Source: Bacteroidia bacterium (lineage in GTDB: Bacteria > Bacteroidota > Bacteroidia > CAIKAF01). Taken from it: a DNA stretch of 52,194 nt. This document shows positions 32,708-51,795 of this stretch, in pieces. The notes below the pieces were generated by a model. That model was not told the DNA's origin. It made no database searches and saw nothing but the letters and a program-made list of their open reading frames with translations. The stretch covers positions 1-52,194 of the forward strand of contig JACVCJ010000025.1 of the NCBI GenBank assembly GCA_016742095.1, in the 5' to 3' direction. Both the position numbers and the translations under genes were made by a program. Positions within the stretch are counted from its first letter, which is position 1. The number at the start of each line of letters is the position of its first letter.

Positions 32708-32781
32708 GGCGAGGTAGCTCAGCTGGTTAGAGCGCATGATTCATAATCATGAGGTCGAGAGTTCAAGTCTCTCTCTCGCTA
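32708..32781 (+). tRNA. tRNA-Met (CAT), CCA not encoded
   Basis: The gene folds as a full cloverleaf. The acceptor stem is GGCGAGG/TCTCGCT with two G-U pairs, the D stem GCTC/GAGC, the anticodon stem CATGA/TCATG with loop TTCATAA (anticodon CAT), and the T stem GAGAG/CTCTC. A is the discriminator. It looks like elongator tRNA-Met. Its 3' part, from 32751, is supplied by the integrated element and is repeated at 44659. Confidence 0.93.
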
Positions 32782-32829
32782 CTTATAGACGATAAAGGAA
32801 AAGCCAGGATTCATAGTCCTGGCTTTTTT
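32751..32829 (+). repeat. attL direct repeat (79 bp)
   Basis: The 79 bases from the variable loop of tRNA-Met through the T tract of its terminator are identical to 44659-44737. Weaker similarity extends left to about 32729, into the anticodon stem and loop. This is the left attachment site of the integrated element. Confidence 0.92.
32800..32829 (+). terminator. Rho-independent terminator after tRNA-Met
   Basis: AAAGCCAGGA (32800-32809) pairs with TCCTGGCTTT (32817-32826), followed by T residues to 32829. It is duplicated intact in attR (44708-44737). Confidence 0.88.
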
Positions 32830-32861: not shown

Positions 32862-34127
32862 CTACTTGCCACCAAAGATTTTAATTGCAAGCACTCCTTT
32901 TTCAATCGCAGAAAGAATAGTCGGGTCAAGATAATGGTTTTCTAATACCTCGGTACTTGCATGCGAAGTGAGAATGCCCGTTTCTTTTCCCATAGCAGTG
33001 TCAACCCACGAAATATAGGTTTTTCTCAAATGCCGGAATGAAATTTCCCGTGTTATGCCTGCCTGTTTGCGGAAATGGGTGAACCCCTTTGAGAGAGCAT
33101 CCATAATAGTTTTCAGCTTCTCTATTCGGTCAGGGTTCAGAATGTACCTATCGGTGTCCTTGTAATTACCGTAACCAAGATGCACTAAGAGGTCGTGCAA
33201 GTCTGCGTTTATTGGCACATACTTATGTGCAACCTCCTGTTGTTCCTTGCGGTTCACTTTGAGGTTAGGAACTAAGATAAACAGCACACCGTTGAACTCC
33301 TTGATGTCTGTCCATTTCAGTATCACTATTTCTTCGCGCCGCAATCCCGTCAGCAGTCCTAATCGGAAGCCGTCTTTGAGATACGGACGGTAGAAATTTT
33401 TTCGTTCTCCTTTGCCTCCCAATACCTCGGTGCGCTTTGCCGTATCTACGGCATGTAGAATGGCATCAAATTCGGCGCGGGTTAATGTCAGCTTTTGCGT
33501 GGGCGGTACCGACTTACTCTCATACACTAAAAACGGATTTTTCATGTCCACATCTTCAACGGAAATCAGGAAATCAAAGAATGCTTTTAGTGCGCCCAAA
33601 ATGCGGTTAAATGTCCGTGGTTCATAGTTCTCCTGTTCAAGCCATTTATACAATCCTGAAACATCATATTTGTTCACGTCGGTTACTCGCACGTGATTGA
33701 TGTCTGTGCGCTGCTTTACAATATCGGCAAAGTACAGGCAGTACCGGATGCACTCGTCTCGGTGTGCTTTTGATACGGTCTTCTTGTGCTGCTCCAGTTC
33801 GTGGTTTCCCTCTAAATACTGATTGTATTTCAGGATTGCAGATGCGAGCGAATAGTCGTTTACTTCCGGAGCAATCTGCGGTTGCGATGCAGCATACGTG
33901 TTGTTCTTTATGTCCTTTCTGAACTCTATGGCTTGCTGCACAGCTTCATCGTAGTTGCGGGTGTCGAGCGTTTTTATTTTTGGATTTTTAGAGCCTGAAA
34001 CATATACGAATACAGCATACTTCTGTGTATCATAATGTTTACACGTTGAGTTATACTTATTACATTTCCCGCAATGGATTTTCAGCCCCTTATGCGGCTT
34101 CTTCGGCATTTTTAGTCTTTCTGTCAT
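32862..34127 (-). CDS. int: Tyrosine recombinase (integrase)
   Basis: 421 residues. The catalytic residues of phage-type integrases are visible: Arg263 in GLLTGLRREE, His366 and Arg368 in SFRHLRKT, His389 in TSHAST and the nucleophile Tyr399 in ENHYLDP. The core-binding SAM-like domain is at about 92-190. The N-terminus has C19, C22, C29 and H31 (HCGKCNKYNSTCKHY), a likely zinc-binding arm module that is uncommon. It lies directly after attL and overlaps the upstream xis-like gene by 4 bases. It should catalyse integration into and excision from tRNA-Met. Confidence 0.93.
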   Translation of the reverse strand: MTERLKMPKKPHKGLKIHCGKCNKYNSTCKHYDTQKYAVFVYVSGSKNPKIKTLDTRNYDEAVQQAIEFRKDIKNNTYAASQPQIAPEVNDYSLASAILKYNQYLEGNHELEQHKKTVSKAHRDECIRYCLYFADIVKQRTDINHVRVTDVNKYDVSGLYKWLEQENYEPRTFNRILGALKAFFDFLISVEDVDMKNPFLVYESKSVPPTQKLTLTRAEFDAILHAVDTAKRTEVLGGKGERKNFYRPYLKDGFRLGLLTGLRREEIVILKWTDIKEFNGVLFILVPNLKVNRKEQQEVAHKYVPINADLHDLLVHLGYGNYKDTDRYILNPDRIEKLKTIMDALSKGFTHFRKQAGITREISFRHLRKTYISWVDTAMGKETGILTSHASTEVLENHYLDPTILSAIEKGVLAIKIFGGK

Positions 34128-36042: not shown

Positions 36043-36044
36043 CC

Positions 36045-37798: not shown

Positions 37799-37846
37799 AC
37801 ATATCAAACCGTACCATGCACAAACAAGGGCAATAAGATGTATTTT

Positions 37847-37864
37847 TTCGCAGTTGACTGCGAA
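37847..37864. promoter_or_regulatory. XRE operator palindrome O1
   Basis: TTCGCAGTTGACTGCGAA is a perfect inverted repeat, 8 bp per arm around TG. It lies 49 bases upstream of the XRE start and 15 bases from the end of the serine recombinase gene. Read on the minus strand it matches 14 of the first 15 bases of the site at 39768. Confidence 0.6.
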
Positions 37865-37879
37865 CCTGTGGGGATAAGT

Positions 37880-39487
37880 TTATGAAGCACTTACATTTCT
37901 TGTAAGAATATCGTACAGGTGTATCAGATTGCTTTTTATTTGCGCTGCTTGTAGCACGATAGTGTCGTCATCTTTACTACTTTTTTTGGAACTTCGTTTT
38001 GAGAAGAACCCATTCTGGGAAAGGGGTACTGAAAACAGCTCATTCGCCTTGAAATTAAAGGCTCGCTGGGCGGTTCGACTTTTTTCTTTCAAAAGGGTCA
38101 TTCCGCAAGGAAAGGCGAACCATTGTAATGCTAATTTTTGCTCAAATGGGGCTATTTCCCATGTTTTTGCAGGGCTTTTCAGGAATTGCAGTGTTGTGTC
38201 TACTACATTGTCCCAATCCTGTTTATCGCGTTTGTCTATGCGAGAAAGTGCCAAATGCAGTTTCCCGATTTCATGCTCAATTACATCCAACTCCTGCTTT
38301 AAAATGGCATCAGGAATAACGCCTGTATAGTTCTTCTCAATAAGTGTACGCTGCCGCCTTTGGAGTTCTTGAACCTGCTTTTTTAATAGTTCTGTTTCCC
38401 GTTGCTCACGTTCCGTTTTTTCAATAAAGACTTCTTGTACAAATGCATGCAGTTTTTGTTGGTCTTCCTTTGAGTATCGTAGTTTGTCTAATTCGATTTT
38501 AAACAAAGATTCCATGTATTCTTTTTTGTGCATACCGCTTTCGCTTTTGAAACGGTAATAGGCATAGCGTTTATTTCTTCCACGGCTCCAACAGCCGGTT
38601 ATCTTACGTCCGTATTCCGAGATAATAAAGCGGCGCAGCGGGAAATCGGGATTTTCTTTTTGGTATACGAAAGCCCGTCGGGTTTTGCCTGCCAATACTC
38701 GCTGTACCTGATCGAAAGTTTCTTGGCTCACTATGGGGTCAAAAATACCTCTGTAACGTGTTCCGTACTTAACAATCCACCCTGCGTATATTTCAGAGCG
38801 GAGCATGCGGTAAAACAACGATTTTGCAATCGGTTTCCCTGATTTTGTCAGCAGCCCCTCTCGTGTCATCTTGGCGCGTATATCTTCTAATGTTCCCGTA
38901 TACTGCGCTACTTCCTCGAATGTCTTTCGGATTATTGGCGCAAAATGATTAGGCGCGATATTGGATTTTCCTGCAACGCGCACATTGTCGTATCCGTAGG
39001 GGGCAAGAAACACAAAACGTCCCTCTTTTACAGCCTCCTCCATACCGCCCTTTGTTCGTTCCGCACGCATGTCGTTGTCAAACTGGCTGACACTTACAAT
39101 AACATTCTCCATAAACCGCCCTGCGGGTGTATTTTCAAAGTATTCAGTAATGGATTTAATTTCTACGTCATATCGTTTGAGCAAAATTCGTATATAGCTG
39201 TAATCGTCAGATTGTCGGGCGATACGGTCTAATTTATACGTCAAAACTGCCTCAATCTTATTCTTGCGGTTGGTGCAGTAGGTCAGCATTCGCTGTAACT
39301 CTGTTCGAAGCGTAGTTTTTGCACTCTCTCCCTGCTCAACAAAGACTTCTACAATCTCATAATTATGTTTGAGGGCGTATTCACGACAAAGCCGCTCCTG
39401 GGTAACAAGGCTGTTGCCTTCATCTACTTGTTCACGGGAAGATACGCGGGTATAAATAATCGCTCTTTTGAAACGGTTATCCTTCAT
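37880..39487 (-). CDS. Large serine recombinase
   Basis: 535 residues from the ATG at 39485-39487. The resolvase domain starts RAIIYTRVSSREQ with the nucleophile Ser16, and has RTELQRML and YKLDRIARQSDD. The recombinase domain (about 160-270) is followed by a zinc-ribbon-like region (about 290-330) that keeps the KITGCWSRGRNKRYAYY pattern but has lost the usual paired Cys. A coiled coil (about 370-440) follows. It can integrate, excise or resolve DNA. It is AT-rich relative to the host. It is a second recombination system inside the tyrosine-integrase island. Confidence 0.9.
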   Translation of the reverse strand: MKDNRFKRAIIYTRVSSREQVDEGNSLVTQERLCREYALKHNYEIVEVFVEQGESAKTTLRTELQRMLTYCTNRKNKIEAVLTYKLDRIARQSDDYSYIRILLKRYDVEIKSITEYFENTPAGRFMENVIVSVSQFDNDMRAERTKGGMEEAVKEGRFVFLAPYGYDNVRVAGKSNIAPNHFAPIIRKTFEEVAQYTGTLEDIRAKMTREGLLTKSGKPIAKSLFYRMLRSEIYAGWIVKYGTRYRGIFDPIVSQETFDQVQRVLAGKTRRAFVYQKENPDFPLRRFIISEYGRKITGCWSRGRNKRYAYYRFKSESGMHKKEYMESLFKIELDKLRYSKEDQQKLHAFVQEVFIEKTEREQRETELLKKQVQELQRRQRTLIEKNYTGVIPDAILKQELDVIEHEIGKLHLALSRIDKRDKQDWDNVVDTTLQFLKSPAKTWEIAPFEQKLALQWFAFPCGMTLLKEKSRTAQRAFNFKANELFSVPLSQNGFFSKRSSKKSSKDDDTIVLQAAQIKSNLIHLYDILTRNVSAS

Positions 39488-39752
39488 AGTGCCTGTTTTG
39501 GGCAAAGGCTACATCTACTAATAGTATAGCGAGATAGCGCAAGGCGGCTTCTTTGCCCATCGTGTTAGGGTTCGGATAATTACCCAAAGAGGGACAACGG
39601 TTAGCTGTTTTGTTGCTACACAAAAACATCCGTTGCCCCTCTTTGGGTTCAAAATGTGACACAGCTTTTCTTTTGTTTTTGTGTAGCCTTTTCATAGTAG
39701 CAAAAACAGAAGCCTCCGTTAATACCTCCATTCTGCCCATTTTCATATCCAC
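39477..39752 (-). CDS. Small protein upstream of the serine recombinase
   Basis: 91 residues from the ATG at 39750-39752, with further Met codons at 3, 7, 20, 42 and 65. Its stop overlaps the recombinase start by 11 bases. The C-terminal part KEAALRYLAILLVDVAFAQ is a well-formed amphipathic helix; the N-terminal half overlaps a large inverted repeat (39582-39648). The true protein may be only the last 27 residues (from Met65, MGKEAALRYL). I do not recognise a function. Confidence 0.45.
   Translation of the reverse strand: MDMKMGRMEVLTEASVFATMKRLHKNKRKAVSHFEPKEGQRMFLCSNKTANRCPSLGNYPNPNTMGKEAALRYLAILLVDVAFAQNRHYEG
39582..39648. repeat. Large inverted repeat near the recombinase/ATPase divergence
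   Basis: ACCCAAAGAGGGACAACGG (39582-39600) pairs with CCGTTGCCCCTCTTTGGGT (39630-39648), 18 of 19 positions. The loop itself contains TGTTTTGT against ACAAAAACA (about 39606-39628). In addition GCTACACAAAAACA (39615-39628) has an exact inverse TGTTTTTGTGTAGC at 39674-39687, allowing two alternative folds. It lies inside the small gene and 180-250 bases before the VirD4-like start. It could be a transfer origin, a recombination site or an RNA switch. Confidence 0.6.
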
Positions 39753-39767
39753 AGGTAAGTGGATTTT

Positions 39768-39787
39768 TTCGCAGACAACTGCAAGAA
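39768..39787. promoter_or_regulatory. XRE operator-like site O2
   Basis: TTCGCAGACAACTGCAAGAA is an imperfect palindrome sharing TTCGCAG-N-CAACTGC with the inverse of O1. TCCACAGG, also near O1, lies just before it. A -7-like TATTTTG (about 39797-39803) follows, then the ATPase ATG at 39831. Confidence 0.5.
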
Positions 39788-39830
39788 AATCCCTCTATTT
39801 TGGGGAAAAGTATCGGGGTACGCTTGGGAT

Positions 39831-41003
39831 ATGTATGAACCACACAACCCCATTACGTATATCGGTCAGACCACCTGGCGCGGACAGCACAAAACATTCG
39901 GCATTAAAGAACAAGACCGCTTTACCGGCATGTATCTGCTCGGAAAATCGGGCTCCGGTAAGACACATCTGTTACAAACTATGGCGTTATCTGATATACA
40001 AATGGGGCGCGGATTAGCATTCCTCGATCCCCACGGAGATGCTGCCCAGTACCTCCTGAACCATATACCAAAACACCGGCAAGGGGATGTAATCTACTTC
40101 AACCCCTCAGACCTCGATATAGTAAGCGCCTTTAATCCATTGGAAGGCATACCGCCGGCATACCACCATATCGCGGTATCGGGGCTTATCGGTACGTTCA
40201 AACGCATATTTGAGAGTTCCTGGGGAAACAAACTGGAACACGTTATGCGATTTGCGCTGCTCACCCTTATTGCTGCCGAGGGTACCACGCTGCTCGACCT
40301 GCCGCGCCTCCTTACCGACTACACCTACCGCTACGAACTACTCGCCACCTGGATACGCGAACCGCATATACTGAACTTTTGGGAGCAGGAATACGACCGC
40401 CTAAGCAAGTCTGCACAAAATGAGTTAGTCGCGCCCATCATGAACAAAATTGGCATCTTTCGCGCCAATGCACCGCTCCGTAACGTATTTGGGCAGCAGA
40501 CCTCAGATTTTCGTATACAAGAAATCATGGACGGCAAAAAGATACTTATTGCGAACGTATCAAAGGGAACATTGGGGGAAGACACATCACGGATCATGGG
40601 CAGCTTCCTCATGACCTCATTTATGAACGGCGCACAATTTCGAGCGCACCAAAGCGAAGAAACCCGCGTACCGTTCTTTTTGTATGCAGATGAAGCGCAC
40701 AACTTCATATCGGTAGCTATTGCACAAATACTCTCCGAATGCCGCAAGTTTAAGCTGGGACTAATTGCAGCACACCAGTATCTGTCTCAAATGCCAGACG
40801 AAGTACAGGATGCGATGTTTGGAAATATCGGGACCCTTCTGTGCTTCCGCGTTGGTTCTACCGATGCGAGGCGATTAGTCCACGAATTTGCACCCGTCTT
40901 TGATGTACAGGATTTGCTGCACCTGCGGCAGTATCACTTTTATATCAAGCTCTGTATCGACGGAGTGACCAGTATGGCATTTAGTGGGAGGACGATAAAA
41001 TAA
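39831..41003 (+). CDS. VirD4/TraG-type (HerA-FtsK) DNA-pump ATPase
   Basis: 390 residues from the ATG at 39831; an upstream in-frame ATG at 39759 overlaps operator O2 and is unlikely. Walker A GKSGSGKT is at 38-45, FLDPHGD at 64-70, FNPLEG at 101-106 and Walker B YADEAHNF at 285-292. The sensor-like HQYLSQMPDEV is at 315-325. No transmembrane helix precedes the ATPase, unlike most conjugative coupling proteins. It would move DNA during transfer or segregation. No relaxase is nearby. The compact form is reminiscent of Patescibacteria versions, which needs a search. Confidence 0.82.
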   Translation: MYEPHNPITYIGQTTWRGQHKTFGIKEQDRFTGMYLLGKSGSGKTHLLQTMALSDIQMGRGLAFLDPHGDAAQYLLNHIPKHRQGDVIYFNPSDLDIVSAFNPLEGIPPAYHHIAVSGLIGTFKRIFESSWGNKLEHVMRFALLTLIAAEGTTLLDLPRLLTDYTYRYELLATWIREPHILNFWEQEYDRLSKSAQNELVAPIMNKIGIFRANAPLRNVFGQQTSDFRIQEIMDGKKILIANVSKGTLGEDTSRIMGSFLMTSFMNGAQFRAHQSEETRVPFFLYADEAHNFISVAIAQILSECRKFKLGLIAAHQYLSQMPDEVQDAMFGNIGTLLCFRVGSTDARRLVHEFAPVFDVQDLLHLRQYHFYIKLCIDGVTSMAFSGRTIK

Positions 41004-41030
41004 AACCCCCTCCGACCCGAGAGGGGGTTT
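41003..41030. terminator. Bidirectional terminator
   Basis: AAACCCCCTC (41003-41012) pairs with GAGGGGGTTT (41021-41030). It serves the ATPase gene on plus and the convergent small gene on minus. Confidence 0.75.
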
Positions 41031-41050
41031 AATGAAAATAAATCATCACC

Positions 41051-41263
41051 CTACTTTTTCTTCTTATCTAAAGAATCAATAGTTGCACTAAGCGCCTTAT
41101 CCGTCACATCAATAGTTGCACTAAGCGCCCTATCTGTTAAGTCGATAGCTCCTCCAAGAGCTTTATCTAACAGATCAATAGGATCAAACCATGAAGACGA
41201 TGATTTTTGCGGTTCTGAGGTTTTTCCCTCATTGCACGAGCATGAGCATTTACAATTACACAT
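41051..41263 (-). CDS. Cys-rich, tandem-repeat small protein
   Basis: 70 residues. MCNCKCSCSCNEG at the N-terminus gives five Cys in the first ten residues, a probable metal-binding or lipid-modified head. After a Ser-rich linker come tandem 11-residue repeats of the form D-x-TDxALSATI (about 30-62: LDKALGGAID, LTDRALSATID, VTDKALSATID, SLDKKKK). At the DNA level a 33-base unit is repeated. The repeats should form an amphipathic helix. I know no family. It is convergent with the ATPase gene and has its own upstream region. Confidence 0.55.
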   Translation of the reverse strand: MCNCKCSCSCNEGKTSEPQKSSSSWFDPIDLLDKALGGAIDLTDRALSATIDVTDKALSATIDSLDKKKK

Positions 41264-41349
41264 AATTTATTAATTTTATGCCTACAAGGTACAGTATATG
41301 TACTTGTTACTAAAGTCCAACATCAACCGCAAAAGTCCAACATCTTATC

Positions 41350-42045
41350 ATGCCCCCAAGAACAAGCGATGTGTGCCTTTCTGAAAATCAGGTACAAGAA
41401 TTATCAGAACAGATAAAAAGCGTTTTCCGTAGCCGTTCCAATTCAACAGCACCGTTTACTAAGACAAAAGGAAGTCCTGTATACGAAGAATTAAAAGATT
41501 TAATATATACTTATACTGGTGTCTATTTCAGTACATCAACCCTAAGAAATCTTCTTACAGGAAGCCATAATGGGCGTTTTAGAAATGATACTCATAATGC
41601 GCTGACCGTATTCATATTGAAATCCATGAAGAATAATTATGATGAAAATATAAATCCTGATTATCAGCGCATCTTTTGGGGCGTGAACCACAATCTTCCA
41701 CCCGGCGCGTTTATTGAGCGTACCAAAGGGGAATTTATCTCTTGGGAACAATTAAAAAAAGAATTGGACAATAGTGCGATCAACCAATGTCCTCGTATTA
41801 TTCCAGTTGGTTCTCAAGTTGTACTTGCTCCATTTTATGGTAAAGATGATTGGCTTGTTAATATCATTAATACAAAAGGTGAAACCATCGGATCAGTGTG
41901 GATTGGTGGCGACCCGTACAATAATTGGAATCAAGACGGGCTGGTTCGCGTAGGTAAAACGATTAGCGATACGGAATGGGAAGTGTACCAAGTTCTGGCT
42001 CGTTACCCAGATGCCTCATACAGAATTGTAAAATCCTTTGTGTAG
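41350..42045 (+). CDS. Unrecognised 231-residue protein
   Basis: No signal peptide or membrane segment. Two parts are visible: an N-terminal helical region (about 10-95) with ENQVQELSEQIKSVF and FSTSTLRNLLTGSHNGRFR, which looks like a DNA-binding-type fold, and a beta-rich C-terminal region (about 140-231) with GSQVVLAPFYGKDDWLV, VWIGGDP and GLVRVGKTISDTEWEVYQV. The second part could bind a ligand. AT-rich codon use sets it apart from the host genes. It ends in a gene-free stretch with a terminator at 42119. Function unknown. Confidence 0.7.
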   Translation: MPPRTSDVCLSENQVQELSEQIKSVFRSRSNSTAPFTKTKGSPVYEELKDLIYTYTGVYFSTSTLRNLLTGSHNGRFRNDTHNALTVFILKSMKNNYDENINPDYQRIFWGVNHNLPPGAFIERTKGEFISWEQLKKELDNSAINQCPRIIPVGSQVVLAPFYGKDDWLVNIINTKGETIGSVWIGGDPYNNWNQDGLVRVGKTISDTEWEVYQVLARYPDASYRIVKSFV

Positions 42046-42118
42046 TTTGACTTTTTGTATCGAAAATGATTTACTTTAAACGTCGCCTCCGTCAGGACAA
42101 GACATTTACATTACACAG

Positions 42119-42153
42119 CCCCTTTTGACCTGAATAGGTAAAAGGGGTTTTTT
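42119..42153 (+). terminator. Rho-independent terminator
   Basis: CCCCTTTT (42119-42126) pairs with AAAAGGGG (42140-42147), followed by six T. It ends the 231-residue gene transcript. The remainder of 42046-42339 shows no gene. Confidence 0.8.
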
Positions 42154-42339
42154 GTTGTCTTTATTTATTCATAACGCCATACAGGAAAAATCCTCATCAA
42201 AAACAGGAATTTTCCCTGTTGGTTTTTAGTTCTTCGTTCAATTACTTTGTCTTCATCTCAACCGAGAGCCTTATACAAACAACAATGCTGACGCAGACCT
42301 CTATCTGCACTTTTTGTAATTAATTCTAAATACTTCAAT

Positions 42340-42834
42340 ATGAAAGTAGCAAAAATGAGCATTGCCATACTGGCAATCGGAATGGCGCTGACTTCCTGCC
42401 AAAAAGGAGAAGACACGCTGAAAGACAATGTAGGAACCGCGAACATCCAAAAGGATTCGCCGACCATGCTGAAAGTAAAGACATGGTACCATCAACCGGC
42501 GGTTCCCAATGGCCCGTCGGAAACATGGTATTGTTCGGGGATGGCGACAAACTGTATGTCTACCGTCACTATCAGACCAAAAGATTTAGTCGTATTCGAC
42601 GACATCTTTAATGCACTGGACGACAACGACTATGCCGAAGTCCTGAACATCATCTGGGCGAATGGTACGGAAGTAAAGAATGTGATGGGCAACGACCTGC
42701 ACGATGCAGTCGTAAACGGCACGCTGAAACTCAGCTACAAGGGCGAAAGTCCTGACGGCACAGGCGAAGACCTGTACCTGCTGTTCACTGATAATGTGGG
42801 CAACATTGATGCAGTAATTCCTATCAACAAGTAG
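42340..42834 (+). CDS. Hypothetical lipoprotein, 164 residues
   Basis: A lipoprotein signal peptide ends in ALTSC (Cys20), followed by a charged linker. The mature part has a Cys pair in WYCSGMATNC and an acidic segment around DDIFNALDDNDYAEV. No family recognised. GC content and codon use are closer to the host than those of the gene before it. It is followed by its own terminator and precedes two further lipoprotein genes, so the right end of the element carries an envelope cargo set. Confidence 0.72.
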   Translation: MKVAKMSIAILAIGMALTSCQKGEDTLKDNVGTANIQKDSPTMLKVKTWYHQPAVPNGPSETWYCSGMATNCMSTVTIRPKDLVVFDDIFNALDDNDYAEVLNIIWANGTEVKNVMGNDLHDAVVNGTLKLSYKGESPDGTGEDLYLLFTDNVGNIDAVIPINK

Positions 42835-42849
42835 TAACAAATGTCTGTG

Positions 42850-42877
42850 CGGAGGCTTCTACGGAGCCTCCGTTTTT
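42850..42877 (+). terminator. Rho-independent terminator
   Basis: CGGAGGCT (42850-42857) pairs with AGCCTCCG (42865-42872) and is followed by five T. It lies 16 bases after the 164-residue gene. Confidence 0.8.
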
Positions 42878-42879
42878 CT

Positions 42880-42887
42880 TATTTTTG
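42880..42887 (+). promoter_or_regulatory. -7 box of the propeller-like lipoprotein gene
   Basis: TATTTTTG is an exact TAnnTTTG match ending 7 bases before the ATG at 42895, implying a leaderless start. The -33 position would fall in the preceding terminator stem, and no clear TTTG is there. Confidence 0.5.
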
Positions 42888-42894
42888 ATACAGC

Positions 42895-44091
42895 ATGAAC
42901 ACACGCATAGTATACGCAGTCCTCATTGCCATACTCTTTGCCGGTTGCGGAAACAGGAGAACAAAAGTACCGCATTCGGACAAACGCTTTGTCGCCATAG
43001 ATAGCTTTGAGATACAGACAGGCTTTATGCCCTCGTCCGTGTATTCAGGCTTCGTACAGGTCGGTGATAGCGGATACCTCTACCTTGCAAATCTACTCGT
43101 GCACGATTCAATTCATTTCTATACCTATCCCGAACTCAAAAAACGAAAAGTCATACCGCTTACAACTATTATGGACAGGGGATATGAACTGTATAACATA
43201 CAGGTCGCAAGCCTCGATTCCATTATGCTCATGGGCAGGTATCACAATATCCTGTTCACCATTGACGACAAAGGGAACATTATCAACGAGCGTGACCTGA
43301 ACCCGTTAGCTGATGCGGATTCTTTTCATATCGACCTTGACCTCCTGCGGGGAAACAATCAAAACCTGTTCACATTTAACGGGAAACAGTATCTACTTCT
43401 GAATGCTGCGAATAGTAGCGTCAAGCCCTATCCTCAAAGTAGTGTGGCAGATGCGTATCGGCTGTATGGCAGTCGCTATACTGACCCCTCGCTTGCCTTA
43501 TATTCCCTGAACGACAATACATTGCGACTGGATTCGCTCGCCCTATTCCGTCCGCTCAATCCTGAGGGAAAATTCATGACAACCAATGCGTTGTATGGTT
43601 ATGTACGGTTTCAAAACAACGTACTCCTGCTTACACCTACCAGTGATACTCTGTATGTCATAAACCCTGAACGGCTGTCCCTTGAACGCAAAATTCAAAT
43701 AACGTACAGTGAGATGGATAAAATAGGGGCAAAACCTACACCCATCTCGGAAGAAAACATTGCTAATGCTTCAAAGTTGTTCACGGAGAGTATGCTGAAA
43801 GGCGGCTATTTGAGTTATCTTTTTACAGATTGGGAACATACACACGTATTTGTCGCAATTATACCTTCAAGGTCGCAAGAAGAAATAGATAATAAGACAG
43901 ACAAGGGAATTACCTTTATTGTTCTTGATCGTAATCTTGAACCGGTAGATGAAGAATATTTTTTCAGTCCCACTACGAGAGTTGGTTTTAATATTGCCGT
44001 CAGTAACGGTTTCCTCTTTTCTCTTGATACGCCCAATAATCCGAACTTTGACGAAACCAAAGCCCGCTTTGCCCTGTACCGTTATGAATAA
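42895..44091 (+). CDS. DUF4221-like beta-propeller lipoprotein
   Basis: 398 residues. The lipoprotein signal ends LFAGC (Cys18). The rest is beta-rich with blade-like units: DSGYLYLANLLVHDSIHFY, DSIMLMGRYHNILFTIDD, GKQYLLLNAANSS and THVFVAIIPS. The pattern suits the DUF4221 or 6-bladed-propeller lipoproteins of Bacteroidota, though I cannot confirm which. The next gene starts inside its last codons, so the two are coupled. These pairs of propeller lipoprotein plus Cys-containing lipoprotein may form a periplasmic or surface complex. Confidence 0.7.
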   Translation: MNTRIVYAVLIAILFAGCGNRRTKVPHSDKRFVAIDSFEIQTGFMPSSVYSGFVQVGDSGYLYLANLLVHDSIHFYTYPELKKRKVIPLTTIMDRGYELYNIQVASLDSIMLMGRYHNILFTIDDKGNIINERDLNPLADADSFHIDLDLLRGNNQNLFTFNGKQYLLLNAANSSVKPYPQSSVADAYRLYGSRYTDPSLALYSLNDNTLRLDSLALFRPLNPEGKFMTTNALYGYVRFQNNVLLLTPTSDTLYVINPERLSLERKIQITYSEMDKIGAKPTPISEENIANASKLFTESMLKGGYLSYLFTDWEHTHVFVAIIPSRSQEEIDNKTDKGITFIVLDRNLEPVDEEYFFSPTTRVGFNIAVSNGFLFSLDTPNNPNFDETKARFALYRYE

Positions 44092-44548
44092 GAACATTGT
44101 TATATTTCTTATAGCCCTCCTGCTTGCATCCTGCGGCACAAAGTCCGATGCACGTACCGAGGCGCTGAACACGTACCTTTCCGAGCAGTTCAAAGCGAAA
44201 GTAGACACCAGCTGGAAAGGAATTGTAGTCTTAACCATGAACGGCTGCTTTTCCTGCAACCGTCATTTCCTCGAAACCATGACCGCACAGCCCGACCTCT
44301 CCGATTACGCAGTACTCGTGTCCGCTGCTGCTGGTACGATACCTCCGAAAGCATACGAAGGGAAGCAGGCAGCCGTAGTGTGGAAGGACTACCAAGACCG
44401 TTTCTACAATACGCAGCTCATGAAATCGTCGGGGATTATCTACACTAAGCAGGGTGTTGTCGATACCATTGTGGACATGCGTTCCGATGGATTGGAACAA
44501 CAGATAGAATACATGCGGCAGCGGTTTTCAGAGAGTAAGTCTATGTAA
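44084..44548 (+). CDS. Lipoprotein with thioredoxin-like CxxC
   Basis: 154 residues from the ATG at 44084, overlapping the upstream stop by 8 bases. The lipoprotein signal ends LLASC (Cys17). IVVLTMNGCFSCNRHFLETM (about 47-66) has a CFSC motif on a hydrophobic strand, the layout of thioredoxin-fold active sites, and is followed by alternating strands and helices. A cis-Pro partner is not obvious. It is probably a thiol-disulphide protein of the envelope acting with the preceding lipoprotein. It is the last element gene before attR. Confidence 0.68.
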   Translation: MNKNIVIFLIALLLASCGTKSDARTEALNTYLSEQFKAKVDTSWKGIVVLTMNGCFSCNRHFLETMTAQPDLSDYAVLVSAAAGTIPPKAYEGKQAAVVWKDYQDRFYNTQLMKSSGIIYTKQGVVDTIVDMRSDGLEQQIEYMRQRFSESKSM

Positions 44549-44658
44549 GAAAAGTATGTCAGAATATCGCTCTTAATCCGTCTTAACCCCTCCTCACCAA
44601 AATCTCAAATCACTGATAATCAATACACATACAATCAGAACGCGTGATTCATAATCAC

Positions 44659-44737
44659 GAGGTCGAGAGTTCAAGTCTCTCTCTCGCTACTTATAGACGA
44701 TAAAGGAAAAGCCAGGATTCATAGTCCTGGCTTTTTT
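44659..44737 (+). repeat. attR direct repeat (79 bp)
   Basis: Identical to 32751-32829, including the T arm, acceptor 3' strand and terminator of tRNA-Met. To its left, CGTGATTCATAATCACG (44643-44658 region) repeats the anticodon arm with one compensated base-pair change. The gene-free bases 44549-44636 before it are AT-rich and would include the right arm of the attachment site. Confidence 0.92.
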
Positions 44738-45010: not shown

Positions 45011-46648
45011 ATGGTTTTCCATTCCTTACAAAGCCGCATTAAGGGTGCTGTGCTGTGGCAGCAATATGGCCTGCGGCGCCTATACGTTCCCTACAGGCAT
45101 CCTTATAAGAATCTTATCGTTAAATGCTGGTTCGAGAGAAACAGAGGTCTTGTCGATATCCGTGTAAGTGTCAGCTGTACAGATATGCGTCTGAGTGCCC
45201 ACTGGTGCAATGCCGAAGCAGAAAGGCTGCGCCATCAGTTGCGGGCCCAATACCATGAACTGCTCAACGAGTGTGAATTAGCGGCTGCTTCCGTACAGTC
45301 CCTTACAGACCTCAGGGATGATGTGCCGCCTGTCTTTACGGGTATTCCGACGACCTGTTCCAAAGAAGCGATCTCGTTCCTGTGCGGACTTAAGGTCGGC
45401 GCTCTTTTTGGCGTATACGGCAGCGGCAAAACCCGGGTGGCGCTCGATGTTGCCTATTCCCGCTTTCAGGCAGGGAAAATAGCAAAGGTGCTGATACTTT
45501 GTCCGACGTCCCGCGCAGAGGACTTCCGGGCACTGTTCAGTCACATACATCCGTACCATGTACTGCCGTACAAGATCATCAGTACGGAAAGCCTGGGCAG
45601 AAGCGGGCGCTGTTACTTCCTGGCTGAAGAGTATGCAGATGCCCGTACCATGATCATCATAGATAACAGCCACCTGGTAAAATCGCCCCTGGCGCAGCGA
45701 AGCAACCGCACGTTGCAGATCTGCCAAAAGGTCGTGTATAAACTGATCCTTTCAGATATCCCGGTCACGGAATCGCCGGCCAATCTCTACATGCAGTATG
45801 CGATGCTTGATCGCCGCATCATCGGAAGCCATAGCTGGGCAAAATTCGCGCGGCAGTTTCTTTTGCTTGGCGGCATCTACTGCAAGGAAGTGCTCGGATA
45901 TAAAAACCTGGATTATCTTACTTCGCTGGTCAGTCCCTATACATTTCAGATCAGGAAGAACAACTCCCAAAAGCCATACGGGAGATTTTACTTCCGCGAA
46001 GTATGCAGCCTGACTGAAAAACAGTCCCGATGCTACCAGGATACCAAACGGGAACTGCTCTACCTGATCATCCGCCAGGAATTGGACCCCGGGCGCCTTA
46101 TGAGGTACCTGATCCGGCTGCAGCAAATTGCCTGTGGGTTTTGTAAATGGGAAGGACGCTACCACTTCCTGGGAACCCACAAGCTCTCGCTCATGAACCG
46201 GCTGCCGTTGGAGGGACAGGTAGTGTTCTTCTGCAAATATCTGTTTGAAGTACAACTTCTCATGCAGCACTTCGGGCCTGAGCACTGCGTCCAGTTTACC
46301 AGCCTGAACCCGCAGAACAGGGAAGCCGGCAAGCAGCAGTTCATCAATGGGCAAAAGCAGTTCTTTATAACGACAACCAGCAACGACTGCACCATACTGG
46401 ACGGACTTATCGTATCCAATAAGCTCGTATTCTTCAGCAAACCGTTTCAGAACCTGTCCACCCGCTGGATCAGCAGCATCGACCAGCCGGGACAGACCCG
46501 CGATGTATTCATTTACGATCTGCGCACGGACAGCGGCATCGACCGGTATATCGACCGGACCATCCGTCGCAAAAAGCTGCTGGAACAGGAAGTGACCTCA
46601 TTACTATTTAATAAAACCCGGTTAAGAGCCTATGTCGAAGCATTATAA
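45011..46648 (+). CDS. Degenerate SNF2-like helicase
   Basis: 545 residues. Walker A GVYGSGKT is at 134-141. The DEAH-box position reads IIIDNSH (216-221) and the motif III position reads LILSDIPVTESP where SNF2 proteins have LTGTPIxN. VKSPLAQRSNR before it is SNF2-like. The C-terminal part has FFCKYLFEVQLLMQHF and the motif VI-like SSIDQPGQTRDVFIYDL then a GIDRYIDRTIRRKK segment. ATPase ability is doubtful because the Walker B Glu is replaced by Asn. The N-terminal 120 residues are unassigned. It overlaps the next gene by 17 bases. Confidence 0.75.
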   Translation: MVFHSLQSRIKGAVLWQQYGLRRLYVPYRHPYKNLIVKCWFERNRGLVDIRVSVSCTDMRLSAHWCNAEAERLRHQLRAQYHELLNECELAAASVQSLTDLRDDVPPVFTGIPTTCSKEAISFLCGLKVGALFGVYGSGKTRVALDVAYSRFQAGKIAKVLILCPTSRAEDFRALFSHIHPYHVLPYKIISTESLGRSGRCYFLAEEYADARTMIIIDNSHLVKSPLAQRSNRTLQICQKVVYKLILSDIPVTESPANLYMQYAMLDRRIIGSHSWAKFARQFLLLGGIYCKEVLGYKNLDYLTSLVSPYTFQIRKNNSQKPYGRFYFREVCSLTEKQSRCYQDTKRELLYLIIRQELDPGRLMRYLIRLQQIACGFCKWEGRYHFLGTHKLSLMNRLPLEGQVVFFCKYLFEVQLLMQHFGPEHCVQFTSLNPQNREAGKQQFINGQKQFFITTTSNDCTILDGLIVSNKLVFFSKPFQNLSTRWISSIDQPGQTRDVFIYDLRTDSGIDRYIDRTIRRKKLLEQEVTSLLFNKTRLRAYVEAL

Positions 46649-47825
46649 GCAACAGAACGTATACGAGGCGGCTGTGGAACGTATGGATTTTGTCTTCACG
46701 CATTTTGAAAAGGTCTATGTTTCCTTCAGCGGGGGAAAAGACAGCGGCCTTATGCTGCACCTGGCCCTGGAAGCCGCCCGCAGACATAAAAGACTGCCCC
46801 TGGATGTGCTTATCATAGACCTGGAAGCCCAGTACCGGCATACCGCAGACTTTCTCCTTCGTGTGGCTGAGCAGCCTGATGTACGGGTCCACTGGGTCTG
46901 CCTGCCCATTCACCTGCGCAATGCCGTAAGTCAGTATACGCCCCACTGGCTCTGCTGGGACCCGGACAAAGAAACATCCTGGGTACGGGAACTGCCCCGG
47001 CATTCCGGGGTGATCTCGGATGAGCATTTTTTCCCGTTTTTCCGCAGGGGCATGGAGTTTGAAGAATTTGTGCCCAGATTCGGCAGCTGGTTCGCCGGAG
47101 ATACGGACACCGCCTGCCTGGTCGGCATTCGTTCTGACGAAAGCCTGAACCGTTTCCGGACCATAAAGGACAGCCGTAAAGAGACCTTTCAGGGTAAGAC
47201 ATGGAGTACCAAAGTGAGTACTCACCTGTATAACTTCTATCCCATTTATGACTGGAGCACGGAGGATGTATGGATCGCTAACGGAAAATTCGGCTATGAC
47301 TATAATAAGATCTACGATCTTATGTACCTGGCGGGCGTACCGCTGAGCCAGCAGCGTTTGTGCCAGCCCTTCGGGGACGACCAGCGGAAAGGATTATACC
47401 TGTACAAGATCCTGGAACCGGAAACCTGGGGGCGCGTCGTTAGCCGCGTGGAAGGCGCTAATTTCGGGAACCGTTACAGCGAGAATAACCAGCACGCACT
47501 GGGGCATTTTCGCCTGCATCTGCCGGAAGGGCACACCTACGAGAGCTATGCCAAATTTCTGCTCGATACGATGCCGCCTCATCTGAAAGAGCATTACACG
47601 GTCAAAATAAACAAGTTCATCGCCTGGTGGGAAAAACAGGGCATGGCATCGATGCCGGATACGGCCGATCCCGTACTGGAAGCACAGAAAAAGGCCCCTT
47701 CCTGGCGCCGGGTATGCAAGGTGCTCCTGAAAAACGACTATTGGTGTACGGGATTGTCTTTCGGGCCCACCAAACGGGATATGGAGCGTCAACAGCAACT
47801 CATTCTAAAATACATGACATTATGA
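46632..47825 (+). CDS. ibrA: IbrA-like PAPS reductase / DUF3440 protein
   Basis: 397 residues. An adenine-nucleotide alpha-hydrolase (PP-loop) motif YVSFSGGKDSGLML is at 29-42. IDLEAQYRHT, LVGIRSDESLNRF and YPIYDWSTEDVW follow the PAPS-reductase-family core, and the C-terminal third is the DUF3440 region (including PLSQQRLCQPFGDDQRKGL). PP-loop enzymes adenylate substrates, often for sulphur transfer; relatives DndC and SspD act in DNA phosphorothioation. IbrA itself has no settled reaction. It overlaps both neighbours (17 and 4 bases), which points to a joint function. Confidence 0.87.
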   Translation: MSKHYKQQNVYEAAVERMDFVFTHFEKVYVSFSGGKDSGLMLHLALEAARRHKRLPLDVLIIDLEAQYRHTADFLLRVAEQPDVRVHWVCLPIHLRNAVSQYTPHWLCWDPDKETSWVRELPRHSGVISDEHFFPFFRRGMEFEEFVPRFGSWFAGDTDTACLVGIRSDESLNRFRTIKDSRKETFQGKTWSTKVSTHLYNFYPIYDWSTEDVWIANGKFGYDYNKIYDLMYLAGVPLSQQRLCQPFGDDQRKGLYLYKILEPETWGRVVSRVEGANFGNRYSENNQHALGHFRLHLPEGHTYESYAKFLLDTMPPHLKEHYTVKINKFIAWWEKQGMASMPDTADPVLEAQKKAPSWRRVCKVLLKNDYWCTGLSFGPTKRDMERQQQLILKYMTL

Positions 47826-48421
47826 TAACAGCTTTCCTGCAACAGTATGCAAATGCACCGTTTGAAGAAAAAGTTCGGATATTTAACGAATGTTCCCAGC
47901 AACTATATGACTTTCTTGGCCTGGAACATCCGGTACTGAACGTTTCGCTGGTTCCCATAGAGACGATAAAAGGGAACGACTACAACCCGAACAAGGTTGC
48001 TCCTCCTGAAATGAAACTGCTCAAGCTTTCCATTACCAAAGATGGCTTTACCATGCCCGTTGTGGTAGCAGGTGAAAATACCTCTGAAGAATTTGTCATA
48101 GTTGACGGCTTTCACAGAAGAACGGTCGTAGACCGGTCCCAACCCATCAAAGACAGTCTGAAAGGCTATTTACCCGTTGTTAAGTTACAGAAAAGTATCG
48201 AAGAGCGTGTTACCGCGACAGTACGCCATAACATGGCCAGGGGCACGCACCAGGTGGAACTGACCGCCAAACTGGTAACGCTCCTCAAGAAACACAACTG
48301 GAGCAATGAACGGATCGCAAAAGAGCTGGGCATGGATGCGGATGAAGTACTTCGCCTCAAGCAGATATCAGGGCTGGCCGAAGCATTTGCCGACAAGGAA
48401 TTTTCAAAGGCGTGGGAATAA
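47822..48421 (+). CDS. ibrB: IbrB-like ParB/sulfiredoxin-fold protein
   Basis: 199 residues from the ATG at 47822, overlapping the ibrA-like stop as ATGA. A ParB N-terminal-like domain (about 40-125) contains VPIETIKGNDYNPNKV, FTMPVVVAG and IVDGFHRRTVV (His98-Arg99-Arg100), followed by a helix-turn-helix-type region (about 140-185) with HNWSNERIAKELGMDADEV. ParB/Srx-fold proteins bind nucleotides and some cut DNA. With IbrA it forms a recognised phage- and plasmid-borne pair. The gene-free 301 bases after it hold a proline- and lysine-rich 38-codon frame (48482-48598) that I do not trust. Confidence 0.85.
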   Translation: MITAFLQQYANAPFEEKVRIFNECSQQLYDFLGLEHPVLNVSLVPIETIKGNDYNPNKVAPPEMKLLKLSITKDGFTMPVVVAGENTSEEFVIVDGFHRRTVVDRSQPIKDSLKGYLPVVKLQKSIEERVTATVRHNMARGTHQVELTAKLVTLLKKHNWSNERIAKELGMDADEVLRLKQISGLAEAFADKEFSKAWE

Positions 48422-48722: not shown

Positions 48723-51584
48723 TTAATTTTTAACCATTCTCTTCGTCGCATATACTTTACCGTCCAGGATAAGGGAGTAGGTGTATATCCCGGTGCTAAG
48801 ATCATCGGCATATACGTTAACGCGCCCCCATCCCCGATCAGGGATGCTCAGCATTTTTATCACTTTACCATTCATATCGGTAAACATCATCTGGGCCTGC
48901 CGGATCTCTGCAGGAATATGGAATTGTATCGATGTGTTTTCTGCAAAGGGATTGGGCACATTCTGATCGAGCACGACCATATAGGTATTGCTCAGTTCTA
49001 CGTCAATTTCGCTGATCTCCTGTTGCTGCACGTCACCATCCGGCCGTGGCTGAGAACAGCACCCGGCAATGAGGGTATACAGGTTTGCGATATCCGTCTG
49101 CATTTGCGTAACACGCGCACTCAGGGAGTCGATCAGCGAGTCCTGAACGGCTATGGAATCCTGCAGGCTCTTTACCGCACCGATAAGTATGGGGACAAAC
49201 TCGATGTAATTCACGCCTTTTACCAGCCGGGGCTTATAAACGGTATCCAGCAGAGAATCCAGCGTGGCCCTGTATAAACCCTCTTTCACAAGTTCCGGCA
49301 AGGTAATTTCCACTTCCTGCGACAGTACGCCATAGTGAGTACGGTCATCAAAATTAGCCTGGGGAAGCATTGCAGATTTATAATTGTAGGAATACACGTT
49401 TATGTTCTTCAGTATGTCCAATGCGTTGGTTATAGGAGCAATATTCGTTTTCAGACTGGAATCGGAAGGAAAGTTAACCGTTTGCAGCCACGAGGTACCA
49501 CCCGCAAAAAAGCCAGCGTACGACAGGGGATTTGTGTTGCCCGGTAAGACTTCGGCATAGACTCCGTAACATTCAGCATTCGGCGAATCTGCCTGGAAAA
49601 GTCCGCCCATAACCCGTACGGCAGACGATGGGCTGCGTGCGTATCCCCTGGCACCAACCGGCTCTATAAAATTCTGCATATCTCCCAGCGCATACCCATA
49701 GGTACCGTGTACCATTCTCATGGCAGCGCCCTGTGCAGCCTGCTGGCCGTTGCCCAGGCCGAAAAGCCCGGTAGCCATGGGCACATTGGCACCAACGTTG
49801 AAAACACGTCCTTCCAGTCCGGTGGCGCCGCTGAAAATATTCTGCCAGGACAGATTACCGGCATTGGTATTAAAGAGGGCGCCTGCGTTTTCTACATTAT
49901 TGATCAGGTACATCTTAGATGATTGGTCTGTGCCCGAGTTGGGATTACTGACCCCGAAACTGATCAGGTTATTTCCGGGGCTGTTGATGCCCTGGAACAA
50001 AAGATCGAAATTGTTCATGGCAATCGTACGATTACCGGTGAAGAGCCCGCTGGGAGTACCACCCGTAAGATACCCGAGCTGCACATTGTTAGCCAGATTG
50101 GGGTCTATACTACACCCGTTATCCGCCGTAACAGTGCCTGAAATAGTAGTAATATCCCGCCAGTGCAGACGCCCGAAGTCATTAGGATTGCGCACCAGGA
50201 TCTGGGTCAGGGTATTGTCCTGGGAAACTGTCCGGATTCTTGTGTCTCCGTCTACATCGAGGGTGGCTCCGACGTAGTTATTGGCGGTAGGACTGATCGT
50301 ACTGAAATCACCTATGCCAAGTGATGGCTTGTTTATTATTGCCGGATTAGAGACAGTATTAAGCATGCCTGGGACAAAACGAGCGACCTCCACTCCATCC
50401 GTGCCGGTAGAAGGAGGTGTTCCGCTACCTGTCCCCGTTGTAGAAGTGAAAATGAAGCGCAAATTATCCGGACCGCCAAATCCACTTATTGGCAGTTGGT
50501 TATCTCCCCAGGATAAAACAGCATCGTGCACCCCAGTTACAGCGGCGTTGGGTTTCAGTCCAAGAAAGACGTGGTCGCTGGCTTTTGTTACCAGTATGCC
50601 CACATCCATCCAGCTCCTGACACCGTCAAGTCCTACACCCGTAGCAGACAAGGTATTGTCTCCCATATGAAGCAATGCCAGTGGACGTGTTAAGGGGAAG
50701 TCAGGGTCATGCGTGATGCCGATACGAGTAAAATCCTTAGCAAAGCCAAAGGGGTTTGTGGGATCGGAGGGGCCTAAGGCGCCGATCTGGGTAATCCGCA
50801 TGCGTTCATTATTTGCACCAGTTCCTGTATTTAGGCTAGTCAGAAACTGAAACATGTGGTTTTCATTGTTGGCCAGACGTGCAACAGAATTATTGTTTCC
50901 AAGTACAAATCCATCTGTTAAACCTGCTCCTGAACTGTTGTTTGATATTTGGATATTGTTGCTGTTACCACCATCATGGATGTGCAGTTGCTGTTGGGGG
51001 GCAATAGGGGTAGTGGGTGTTATAAAGTCACCTAACCCCATACGACCAGCTGCAGTGAACAGGGCAACCTCTCTGTCCAGCGTAGGTTGAATGCCAATAG
51101 TTCGGGTGAAAATAAAACGAAGCCGGGTCGGCAAATTGCCCGGTCCTTCATCGTCTCCCCAGCTTACTACGGCGTCACTTCGCATACCACTGGCAAGTTC
51201 TGTTGCGTCTAATTCACGCATGCCTACATATAGGTTGTTGCTCTCATGGTTCATGTATACACCCGTTCGCATCCATCTTCGCCAACCGGTGCCATTTCCT
51301 GTTCCTGAGTTTCCGCTGATATGAAGCTGTGTCCAGGGGGTCATGGTATTTATACCGACGAACCCATTGGCGGCGATATTACCGGCTCCAACATAAGGTG
51401 GATATACGATGTTTTGATTGATCCGCATACGAAAGGTGTTGTTGGTACGAAAGTCGAGATCTCCTGCGGTAGAATACCCCAAAAAATAGCCTGAGGCCCA
51501 TGAATTACCTACGGTAGTACTCTGGGCAAATAAACCCGGAGTAATGCCCGATAAGCCAAGCAGTGTTAAAAGTAATTTTTTCAT
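48723..51584 (-). CDS. Secreted S74-chaperone protein with T9SS type A tail
   Basis: 953 residues from the ATG at 51582-51584, with signal peptide MKKLLLTLLGL to LFAQ (about 21). A long Gly/Asn/Thr-rich beta region has several related units beginning LGIGDF, LHISGNSG or LLHMGDNT followed by R-x-W-M-x-x-G-x-x. The peptidase S74 intramolecular chaperone (about 700-790) has SSLKTNIAPI, YGVLSQEVE and IEFVPILIGAVKSLQ, then a coiled coil. The last 80 residues are a type A T9SS sorting domain (NVPNPFAENTSIQFHIP to YATKRMVKN). It is probably a trimeric surface fibre. An upstream Met at 51635 is less likely. Confidence 0.87.
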   Translation of the reverse strand: MKKLLLTLLGLSGITPGLFAQSTTVGNSWASGYFLGYSTAGDLDFRTNNTFRMRINQNIVYPPYVGAGNIAANGFVGINTMTPWTQLHISGNSGTGNGTGWRRWMRTGVYMNHESNNLYVGMRELDATELASGMRSDAVVSWGDDEGPGNLPTRLRFIFTRTIGIQPTLDREVALFTAAGRMGLGDFITPTTPIAPQQQLHIHDGGNSNNIQISNNSSGAGLTDGFVLGNNNSVARLANNENHMFQFLTSLNTGTGANNERMRITQIGALGPSDPTNPFGFAKDFTRIGITHDPDFPLTRPLALLHMGDNTLSATGVGLDGVRSWMDVGILVTKASDHVFLGLKPNAAVTGVHDAVLSWGDNQLPISGFGGPDNLRFIFTSTTGTGSGTPPSTGTDGVEVARFVPGMLNTVSNPAIINKPSLGIGDFSTISPTANNYVGATLDVDGDTRIRTVSQDNTLTQILVRNPNDFGRLHWRDITTISGTVTADNGCSIDPNLANNVQLGYLTGGTPSGLFTGNRTIAMNNFDLLFQGINSPGNNLISFGVSNPNSGTDQSSKMYLINNVENAGALFNTNAGNLSWQNIFSGATGLEGRVFNVGANVPMATGLFGLGNGQQAAQGAAMRMVHGTYGYALGDMQNFIEPVGARGYARSPSSAVRVMGGLFQADSPNAECYGVYAEVLPGNTNPLSYAGFFAGGTSWLQTVNFPSDSSLKTNIAPITNALDILKNINVYSYNYKSAMLPQANFDDRTHYGVLSQEVEITLPELVKEGLYRATLDSLLDTVYKPRLVKGVNYIEFVPILIGAVKSLQDSIAVQDSLIDSLSARVTQMQTDIANLYTLIAGCCSQPRPDGDVQQQEISEIDVELSNTYMVVLDQNVPNPFAENTSIQFHIPAEIRQAQMMFTDMNGKVIKMLSIPDRGWGRVNVYADDLSTGIYTYSLILDGKVYATKRMVKN

Positions 51585-51795
51585 ATAAATATTAGGATTT
51601 AGTGAAACAATAATCATGTTAGACGAATACCGCAAATCTTTGCTTCCCGAGGTATATCATTCAAATGGTAGCCCCTATTTTCAAATTTACATCCAGTAGG
51701 TCAATAATCTTCCAATCATTGTATTAATGGCTATTTGAATTGTATAGCCGGCACTAACTCTATTAATATCCAATCAAACGAAGCTCATATATAAT

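What the first reader, a model, noticed from the sequence alone, without database searches (positions are those of the whole stretch)
45011..48421. Compact SNF2-like / IbrA / IbrB operon beside a tRNA attachment site
Three genes overlap by 17 and 4 bases: a SNF2-like protein with degenerate motifs (DNSH for DEAH, SDIP for TGTP), a PP-loop PAPS-reductase/DUF3440 protein, and a ParB/Srx-fold protein. PP-loop plus ParB-fold plus SNF2 helicase recalls the parts lists of DNA phosphorothioation (DndC/SspD) and 7-deazaguanine (Dpd) systems, but no cysteine desulphurase or TGT is present. It may be an unreported nucleic-acid modification, sensing or defence unit.
Basis: partly seen in the sequence, partly recalled or inferred. 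Interest (0 to 1): 0.8.

Follow-up and report, generated by a model that had tools for sequence, protein, structure and literature searches.

The report
Phage-derived IbrAB operon with dead helicase
A widespread but unexplained phage gene trio (a DNA translocase plus the paired proteins IbrA and IbrB) has been kept on this bacterial chromosome with its translocase apparently unable to burn ATP but still conserved, which suggests a DNA-acting machine whose chemistry nobody has tested.

Summary
The three overlapping genes are real: SNF2-like 45011-46648, IbrA (PP-loop/DUF3440) 46632-47825 and IbrB (ParB fold) 47822-48421. The trio is not unique. The same order occurs in 28 of 80 viral contigs fetched by IbrA similarity, in 13 Bacteroidia genome contigs, in Streptococcus phages, and as core genes lmo1311-1310-1309 of Listeria. 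Helicase and IbrA trees conflict, so the pairing was re-formed several times, which points to functional coupling.

IbrA and IbrB here keep essentially every conserved residue. The helicase keeps Walker A but has lost the catalytic glutamate (DESH to DNSH) and the arginine fingers. A Sphingobacteriales MAG (L172) carries exactly the same 3.4-kb cassette with the same 17-bp and 4-bp overlaps. Its helicase is also dead (DKSH), 52% identical, with codon divergence showing purifying selection. It is therefore a conserved pseudo-ATPase, not a decaying gene.

The tRNA attachment site is real, but the trio lies 273 bp outside that element. Nothing supports membership in Dnd, Ssp or Dpd, or a defence role. 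Best guess: an IbrB-targeted, ATP-pyrophosphatase-driven complex acting on DNA, with the SNF2 protein now an ATP-binding, DNA-holding subunit. New variant of a known kind; the mechanism is inferred.

The parts
45011..46648 (+). SNF2/SF2-like pseudo-ATPase, 545 aa; Walker A GSGKT kept, DNSH, SDIP, motif V and VI degenerate
46632..47825 (+). IbrA: PP-loop ATP-pyrophosphatase domain (SGGKDS) plus DUF3440, 397 aa, conserved residues intact
47822..48421 (+). IbrB: ParB-type N-terminal NTP-binding fold plus helix-turn-helix, 199 aa, conserved residues intact
44637..44737 (+). attR: copy of tRNA-Met 3' part plus terminator; edge of the neighbouring integrated element, not part of the trio
32729..32829 (+). 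attL in the intact tRNA-Met gene (32708-32782) plus terminator
32862..34127 (-). tyrosine integrase of the 11.9-kb neighbouring element (context only)

Best explanation
This is a phage-derived IbrA-IbrB cassette kept on a Bacteroidota chromosome together with an SNF2-family partner that has lost ATP hydrolysis but is still maintained. Most likely working model: IbrB, a ParB-type NTP-binding protein with a helix-turn-helix, loads on particular DNA. IbrA, a PP-loop ATP-pyrophosphatase, adenylates a target there (a DNA base or backbone position, or a DNA-bound factor) so that it can be chemically altered. The altered DNA state changes gene expression or protects it. In phages the third gene is an active SNF2-type dsDNA translocase that would give the pair access to DNA. 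In this genome and in L172 it has become an ATP-binding, non-hydrolysing DNA-holding subunit. Shown: gene structure, folds, conserved residues, dead motifs, purifying selection, recurrent coupling. Inferred: ATP-PPase activity, DNA as the target, the helicase as scaffold, the outcome. The identity part is about 0.9 likely; the confidence given is for the whole mechanism.
For: The trio recurs in order in 28 of 80 IMG/VR loci fetched by IbrA similarity, in 13 Bacteroidia genome loci (L173-L185), in Streptococcus phage Pika, in Flavobacterium phage FCL-2 in the order helicase-IbrB-IbrA, and in Listeria core genes. The trees conflict: the window helicase joins L091/L092 (100/99), while its IbrA falls with the main Bacteroidota-phage set and the IbrAs of L091 and L092 go with Streptococcus phage Pika and FCL-2. 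Independent re-pairing implies coupling. IbrA keeps the PP motif SGGKDS; best solved folds are FAD synthase, APS reductase and ATP sulfurylase, Z 14-16, rmsd 3.5-5.0 over 169-189 residues. IbrB is a ParB N-domain plus HTH (KorB, Noc and ParB-CDP, Z 12-14). Helicase: of 139 columns invariant in 14 active relatives the window keeps 73/99 outside but 17/40 inside motifs, Fisher p = 0.0008. L172 has the same overlaps, E219 to K and R489 to S, and codon-position divergence 0.34/0.31/0.62.
Against: No modification, ATPase or DNA-binding activity has been measured for any member as far as the held literature shows. The one reported phenotype of IbrAB is activation of prophage eib genes in E. coli (title of Sandt et al. 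2002, cited in PMC10434257 and PMC6008420; the paper itself is not held), which needs no DNA modification. IbrA has no family-wide cysteine, which speaks against thiol-based sulphur transfer. Only two genomes carry the dead helicase form, and the motif test is weaker for L172 alone (p = 0.08).
Confidence: 0.42

Rival explanations
1. IbrAB is a transcription co-activator without covalent modification: IbrB binds promoter DNA through its HTH, IbrA acts as an ATP-dependent partner, and the SNF2 protein recycles or holds polymerase complexes, as RapA does.
For: Named 'co-activators of prophage gene expression' (PMC4490671, PMC5736727); IbrB closest folds include the transcriptional repressor KorB and its HTH matches sigma region-4-like domains.
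Against: The PP-loop catalytic motif is invariant across phages, plasmids and E. coli YbdN, which pure regulation would not require.
Confidence: 0.23
2. The cassette is only a prophage remnant: IbrAB is retained by chance and the helicase is a pseudogene in slow decay.
For: Helicase catalytic motifs are broken; no other phage gene remains beside it.
Against: A second genome keeps the same three genes with 52/76/79% identity, one gap in each helicase, third-position-biased divergence and shared derived dead residues. The homologous block ends exactly at the trio. Helicase and IbrA GC3 equals that of host core genes.
Confidence: 0.1
3. It is a host defence or toxin-antitoxin unit (IbrA toxin, IbrB antitoxin, helicase sensor).
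For: lmo1309/lmo1310 were listed as a candidate TA pair by guilt by association (PMC7020466); one bacterial locus each has Gabija- and Ssp-like neighbours.
Against: The unit is common in phage genomes themselves; no PADLOC model fits any of the three proteins well; no recurrent defence neighbours.
Confidence: 0.1
4. IbrA is a true auxiliary metabolic enzyme (PAPS reductase or sulphur assimilation).
For: PHROG and phage annotations call it phosphoadenosine phosphosulfate reductase (PMC10434257).
Against: It keeps the PP motif SGGKDS, has no ECGxH-type catalytic cysteine motif in its sequence and no family-wide cysteine, and is constantly paired with a ParB-fold protein that carries an HTH.
Confidence: 0.05

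Closest known systems
IbrA/IbrB of E. coli and YbdN/YbdM of E. coli K-12
   Same: Same two families, same order, overlapping genes; near-universal motifs SGGKDS, YPIYDW, NxYNPN, DGFHR, RHNxARG.
   Different: E. coli lacks the SNF2 partner; function known only as activation of prophage genes or as a CitR-repressed operon (PMC9068703).
Listeria lmo1311-lmo1310-lmo1309
   Same: Chromosomal SNF2-IbrA-IbrB trio in the same order, kept as core genes (PMC5736727, PMC7020466).
   Different: The helicase has intact catalytic motifs (DESL, GTP, SYGLN, ERRxYRTGQ) and, by its length and best phage matches, is of the 400-aa phage type; a small upstream gene is present.
Phage module phrog_5809-helicase-IbrA-IbrB (Flavobacterium FCL-2, Bacteroidota phages)
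   Same: Helicase, IbrA and IbrB adjacent, with 4-bp overlaps in many.
   Different: Helicase active, of about 400 aa, without the N-terminal 115-residue region; extra small gene; located near terminase and portal genes.
Inactive SWI2/SNF2 domain of DndH
   Same: An SNF2 domain without arginine fingers kept in a DNA-acting system and proposed to bind DNA (PMC10853773).
   Different: Only the C-terminal lobe, inside a large multidomain protein of a defence system; no IbrA or IbrB.

Membership tests
IbrA/IbrB (co-activators of prophage gene expression) | PP-loop plus DUF3440 protein followed by an overlapping ParB-like gene | tested here: met
IbrA/IbrB (co-activators of prophage gene expression) | Activates transcription of prophage genes | not testable with these tools
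   Needs expression experiments; primary paper not held
SNF2 ATPase (SF2) | Two-lobe SF2 sequence with Walker A | tested here: met
   Full-length homology to active relatives, GSGKT kept
SNF2 ATPase (SF2) | DExH glutamate and motif VI arginine fingers (ATP hydrolysis) | tested here: not met
   E219 to N, R489 to S, R492 to Q; E219 and R489 also lost in L172
DNA phosphorothioation (DndC / SspD / BrxP) | PP-loop sulphurtransferase matching DndC models | tested here: not met
   TIGR03183 22 bits against cut-off 290; PADLOC DndC 28 bits over a short stretch
DNA phosphorothioation (DndC / SspD / BrxP) | DndC cysteine dyad or other conserved thiols | tested here: not met
   No cysteine conserved across the IbrA family; the dyad is described in PMC10853773
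DNA phosphorothioation (DndC / SspD / BrxP) | Cysteine desulphurase and DndD/DndE or SspB/SspC neighbours | tested here: not met
   Flanking genes are an integrase-bearing element and an S74-domain protein; a desulphurase encoded elsewhere in the genome was not excluded
Dpd (7-deazaguanine in DNA) | TGT-like DpdA with DpdB/DpdC nearby | tested here: inconclusive
   No such gene among the annotated neighbours; no dedicated TGT model was run
CysH PAPS reductase | C-terminal catalytic ECGxH cysteine | tested here: not met
   Motif absent from the sequence; no family-wide cysteine
ParB CTPase clamp | ParB N-terminal fold plus HTH | tested here: met
ParB CTPase clamp | CTP binding, clamp closure, C-terminal dimer domain | not testable with these tools
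   GFHRR replaces GERR; at 199 aa there is little room for a C-terminal dimer domain; nucleotide binding needs an assay
Known anti-phage defence systems (PADLOC) | Whole-protein match to a system model | tested here: not met
   Only weak partial hits

The most novel reading that the evidence does not exclude
IbrA-IbrB is a new, ATP-pyrophosphatase-driven DNA modification system of phages, directed by a ParB-type clamp and served by an SNF2 translocase. Here it has been domesticated on a bacterial chromosome with the translocase turned into a conserved non-hydrolysing DNA-holding subunit.
Probability: 0.22. Interest if true: 0.82.

Novelty: new variant of a known kind. Interest (0 to 1): 0.52.

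Why it matters
IbrA relatives occur in 216 phage and 602 plasmid records and in E. coli and Listeria chromosomes, yet the pair is usually written off as a sulphur-metabolism 'PAPS reductase' and a 'partition protein'. Repeated independent pairing with an SNF2 ATPase, a ParB-plus-HTH fold for IbrB, and the absence of conserved thiols in IbrA point to a DNA-acting machine. A natural variant whose translocase has lost its catalytic residues but is still selected for separates the roles of ATP hydrolysis and DNA holding. Laboratory systems exist (E. coli K-12 ybdNM, S. thermophilus phages), so the question can be tested directly.

Tried and rejected
Membership in Dnd, Ssp, BREX-4 or CysH: rejected on model scores, cysteines and neighbours. 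Trio as cargo of the tRNA-Met element: rejected, because it lies outside attR and its helicase and IbrA GC3 (0.64-0.65) match core genes (0.66-0.68) rather than the element (0.42-0.55); IbrB GC3 is 0.52. Helicase as ordinary pseudogene: rejected. Empty-site comparison: the order has only 16 held genomes; the best one (G406) has tRNA-Met followed by unrelated genes, so no clean empty site was found. Solved structures matching the helicase by sequence: none. Dead-helicase relatives in viral contigs: none found with the window or L172 sequence; 1 of 395 sampled phylum genomes, this one only. The small upstream phage gene (phrog_5809) was not found in the window. Bacteroidota promoter motif upstream of 45011: none found. 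My first triple-alignment test (window against L091 and L092 only) showed no significant excess of motif loss (p = 0.56); the larger set of 14 active relatives did.

Full report
Observation. The window contains exactly what was described: three overlapping genes, helicase-like 45011-46648, IbrA 46632-47825 and IbrB 47822-48421. Family models confirm the calls: PF11922/PF01507 for IbrA, phrog_2159 ParB-like for IbrB, phrog_62 DNA helicase for the first gene. The genome has one DUF3440 gene. The tRNA-Met gene at 32708-32782 and its terminator are duplicated at 44637-44737 (97% over 101 bp). A tyrosine integrase sits beside the intact copy, so an 11.9-kb element occupies 32.7-44.7 kb. The trio begins 273 bp beyond attR, on the chromosomal side. 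Its helicase and IbrA have the third-position GC of core genes; the element does not.

Conservation. IbrA relatives occur in 216 phage and 602 plasmid records. Among 80 viral contigs fetched with this IbrA, 28 have the helicase directly upstream and IbrB directly downstream wherever the contig reaches, often with 4-bp overlaps. All 28 are among the closer IbrA relatives. The set was chosen by IbrA similarity in a viral collection, so these fractions do not measure how often the trio lies in prophages. Streptococcus phage Pika has helicase-IbrA-IbrB; Flavobacterium phage FCL-2 has helicase-IbrB-IbrA between terminase and portal. By counts per genus, Flavobacterium (90 and 90 records) and Streptococcus (21 and 18) phages have both IbrA and helicase relatives, whereas the 55 Mycobacterium IbrA records have no counterpart among the helicase genera listed. 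In Listeria the trio lies among housekeeping genes and is listed as core lmo1309-1311 (PMC5736727, PMC7020466).

Recurrent coupling. The helicase tree joins the window with L091 and L092 (100/99). The IbrA tree puts the window with the main Bacteroidota-phage set, L091 with Streptococcus phage Pika and L092 with FCL-2. Different helicase branches have thus been combined with different IbrAB branches more than once. The tree tool warns of long branches in the IbrA tree, but the identities agree: the window IbrA is 68% identical to L011 and 38-40% to L091 and L092, while its helicase is 38-39% identical to L091 and L092 and about 29% to L011. This is the best evidence here that the three proteins work together.

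State of the parts. Against about 75-78 relatives, the window IbrA and IbrB depart from strongly conserved columns at only 7 and 2 positions, none of them in the PP-loop or the NxYNPN / DGFHR motifs. The helicase departs at the DExH glutamate (E219 to N), motif III (GTP to DIP), motif V (GGTGLNG to DCTILDG) and both motif VI arginines, while Walker A is intact. Of 139 columns invariant in 14 active relatives of the same 550-aa type it keeps 74% outside motifs but 43% inside (p = 0.0008).

The decisive comparison is L172, a Sphingobacteriales MAG contig. Its homology to the window starts and stops with the trio. The overlaps are again 17 and 4 bp; identities are 52, 76 and 79%. The helicase aligns with one gap on each side and codon-position divergence 0.34/0.31/0.62. 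It too has lost E219 (to K) and R489 (to S), along with shared changes such as G488S, K484T, N464D and T248S. The inactivation therefore most likely predates the split and the protein has been kept since: a pseudo-ATPase. The flanks of L172 are ordinary chromosomal genes.

Folds. The IbrA model (pLDDT 82.5) matches PP-loop enzymes: FAD synthase, APS/PAPS reductase and ATP sulfurylase, Z 14-16. It keeps SGGKDS, typical of ATP-pyrophosphatases, and lacks the CysH ECGxH cysteine motif; no cysteine is universal across the family. 'PAPS reductase' is therefore a misleading name. The PP-loop reading is from general knowledge of that superfamily. The DUF3440 half was not covered by the structural matches. 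The IbrB model (pLDDT 85.8) is a ParB N-domain followed by an HTH, closest to KorB, Noc and CDP-bound ParB.

Mechanism. I favour an IbrB-targeted, IbrA-catalysed adenylation step on DNA or on a DNA-bound target, with an SNF2 translocase as access factor in phages and a non-hydrolysing DNA-holding subunit here. The published IbrAB phenotype, activation of prophage genes, fits either modification-dependent or plain regulation. A side lead supports DNA chemistry. In Bacteroidia mobile elements extra genes sit between helicase and IbrA: a GNAT acetyltransferase in L173 (8e-8), or methylase-like proteins in L180, L182 and L092 with weak matches below the Pfam cut-off. Thymidylate synthase and dCMP deaminase families also appear in those neighbourhoods.

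What is known and what is new. IbrAB is a named pair, and the trio is listed, unexplained, in Listeria. I found no paper among those held that treats the trio as a unit or reports a conserved catalytically dead version. Direct text searches for the combination returned nothing specific.

Noticed in passing
L173:4629-5033, L174:2806-3213, L177:9654-10076; L180:9613-11634; L182:9622-11601; L092:7613-9634: In Bacteroidia mobile elements the helicase and IbrA genes are separated by variable enzymes: a GNAT acetyltransferase, or two methylase-like proteins plus a protein of about 260 aa. This looks like an exchangeable modification slot.
   Followed up: partly
L173:1418-1993, L179:6862-7446, L182:6798-7370, L183:264-845: A gene of about 190 aa conserved upstream of the 550-aa-type helicase, no convincing Pfam match; by eye it resembles the HARP domain of SMARCAL1-type proteins (not tested).
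   Followed up: no
L131:3825-4145, L011:4492-4812, L030:4477-4803: phrog_5809, unknown protein of about 107 aa, is a frequent fourth gene directly upstream of the helicase in phages; not found in the window.
   Followed up: partly
window 32708-44737: 11.9-kb integrated element in tRNA-Met with tyrosine integrase, serine recombinase (37880-39505) and a TrwB/TraD-like coupling protein (39759-41003). The anticodon stem in attR differs from the intact tRNA by compensating changes (CATG/CATG against CGTG/CACG).
   Followed up: partly
L192 (NZ_LR134403.1, Listeria 'plasmid 6'): A record filed as a plasmid carries chromosomal housekeeping genes (rseP, frr, pyrH, tkt) and the trio; it looks like a misfiled chromosome piece. 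NZ_CP030101.1 (2.9 Mb) is probably the same kind of error.
   Followed up: no
window 48723-51635: 970-aa protein with a C-terminal Peptidase_S74 chaperone domain just downstream on the other strand; related proteins occur in family genomes, which lack the trio helicase.
   Followed up: partly
L012:3931-4629, L042:7899-8627, L047:1134-1817, L085:4131-4868: Some phages carry a second, shorter IbrA-like protein next to the IbrA-IbrB pair.
   Followed up: no
L111-L129 and similar: The helicase P0001 also matches long (about 1000 aa) chromosomal SNF2 proteins in many Bacteroidota genomes; these look like generic helicases, not trio members.
   Followed up: partly
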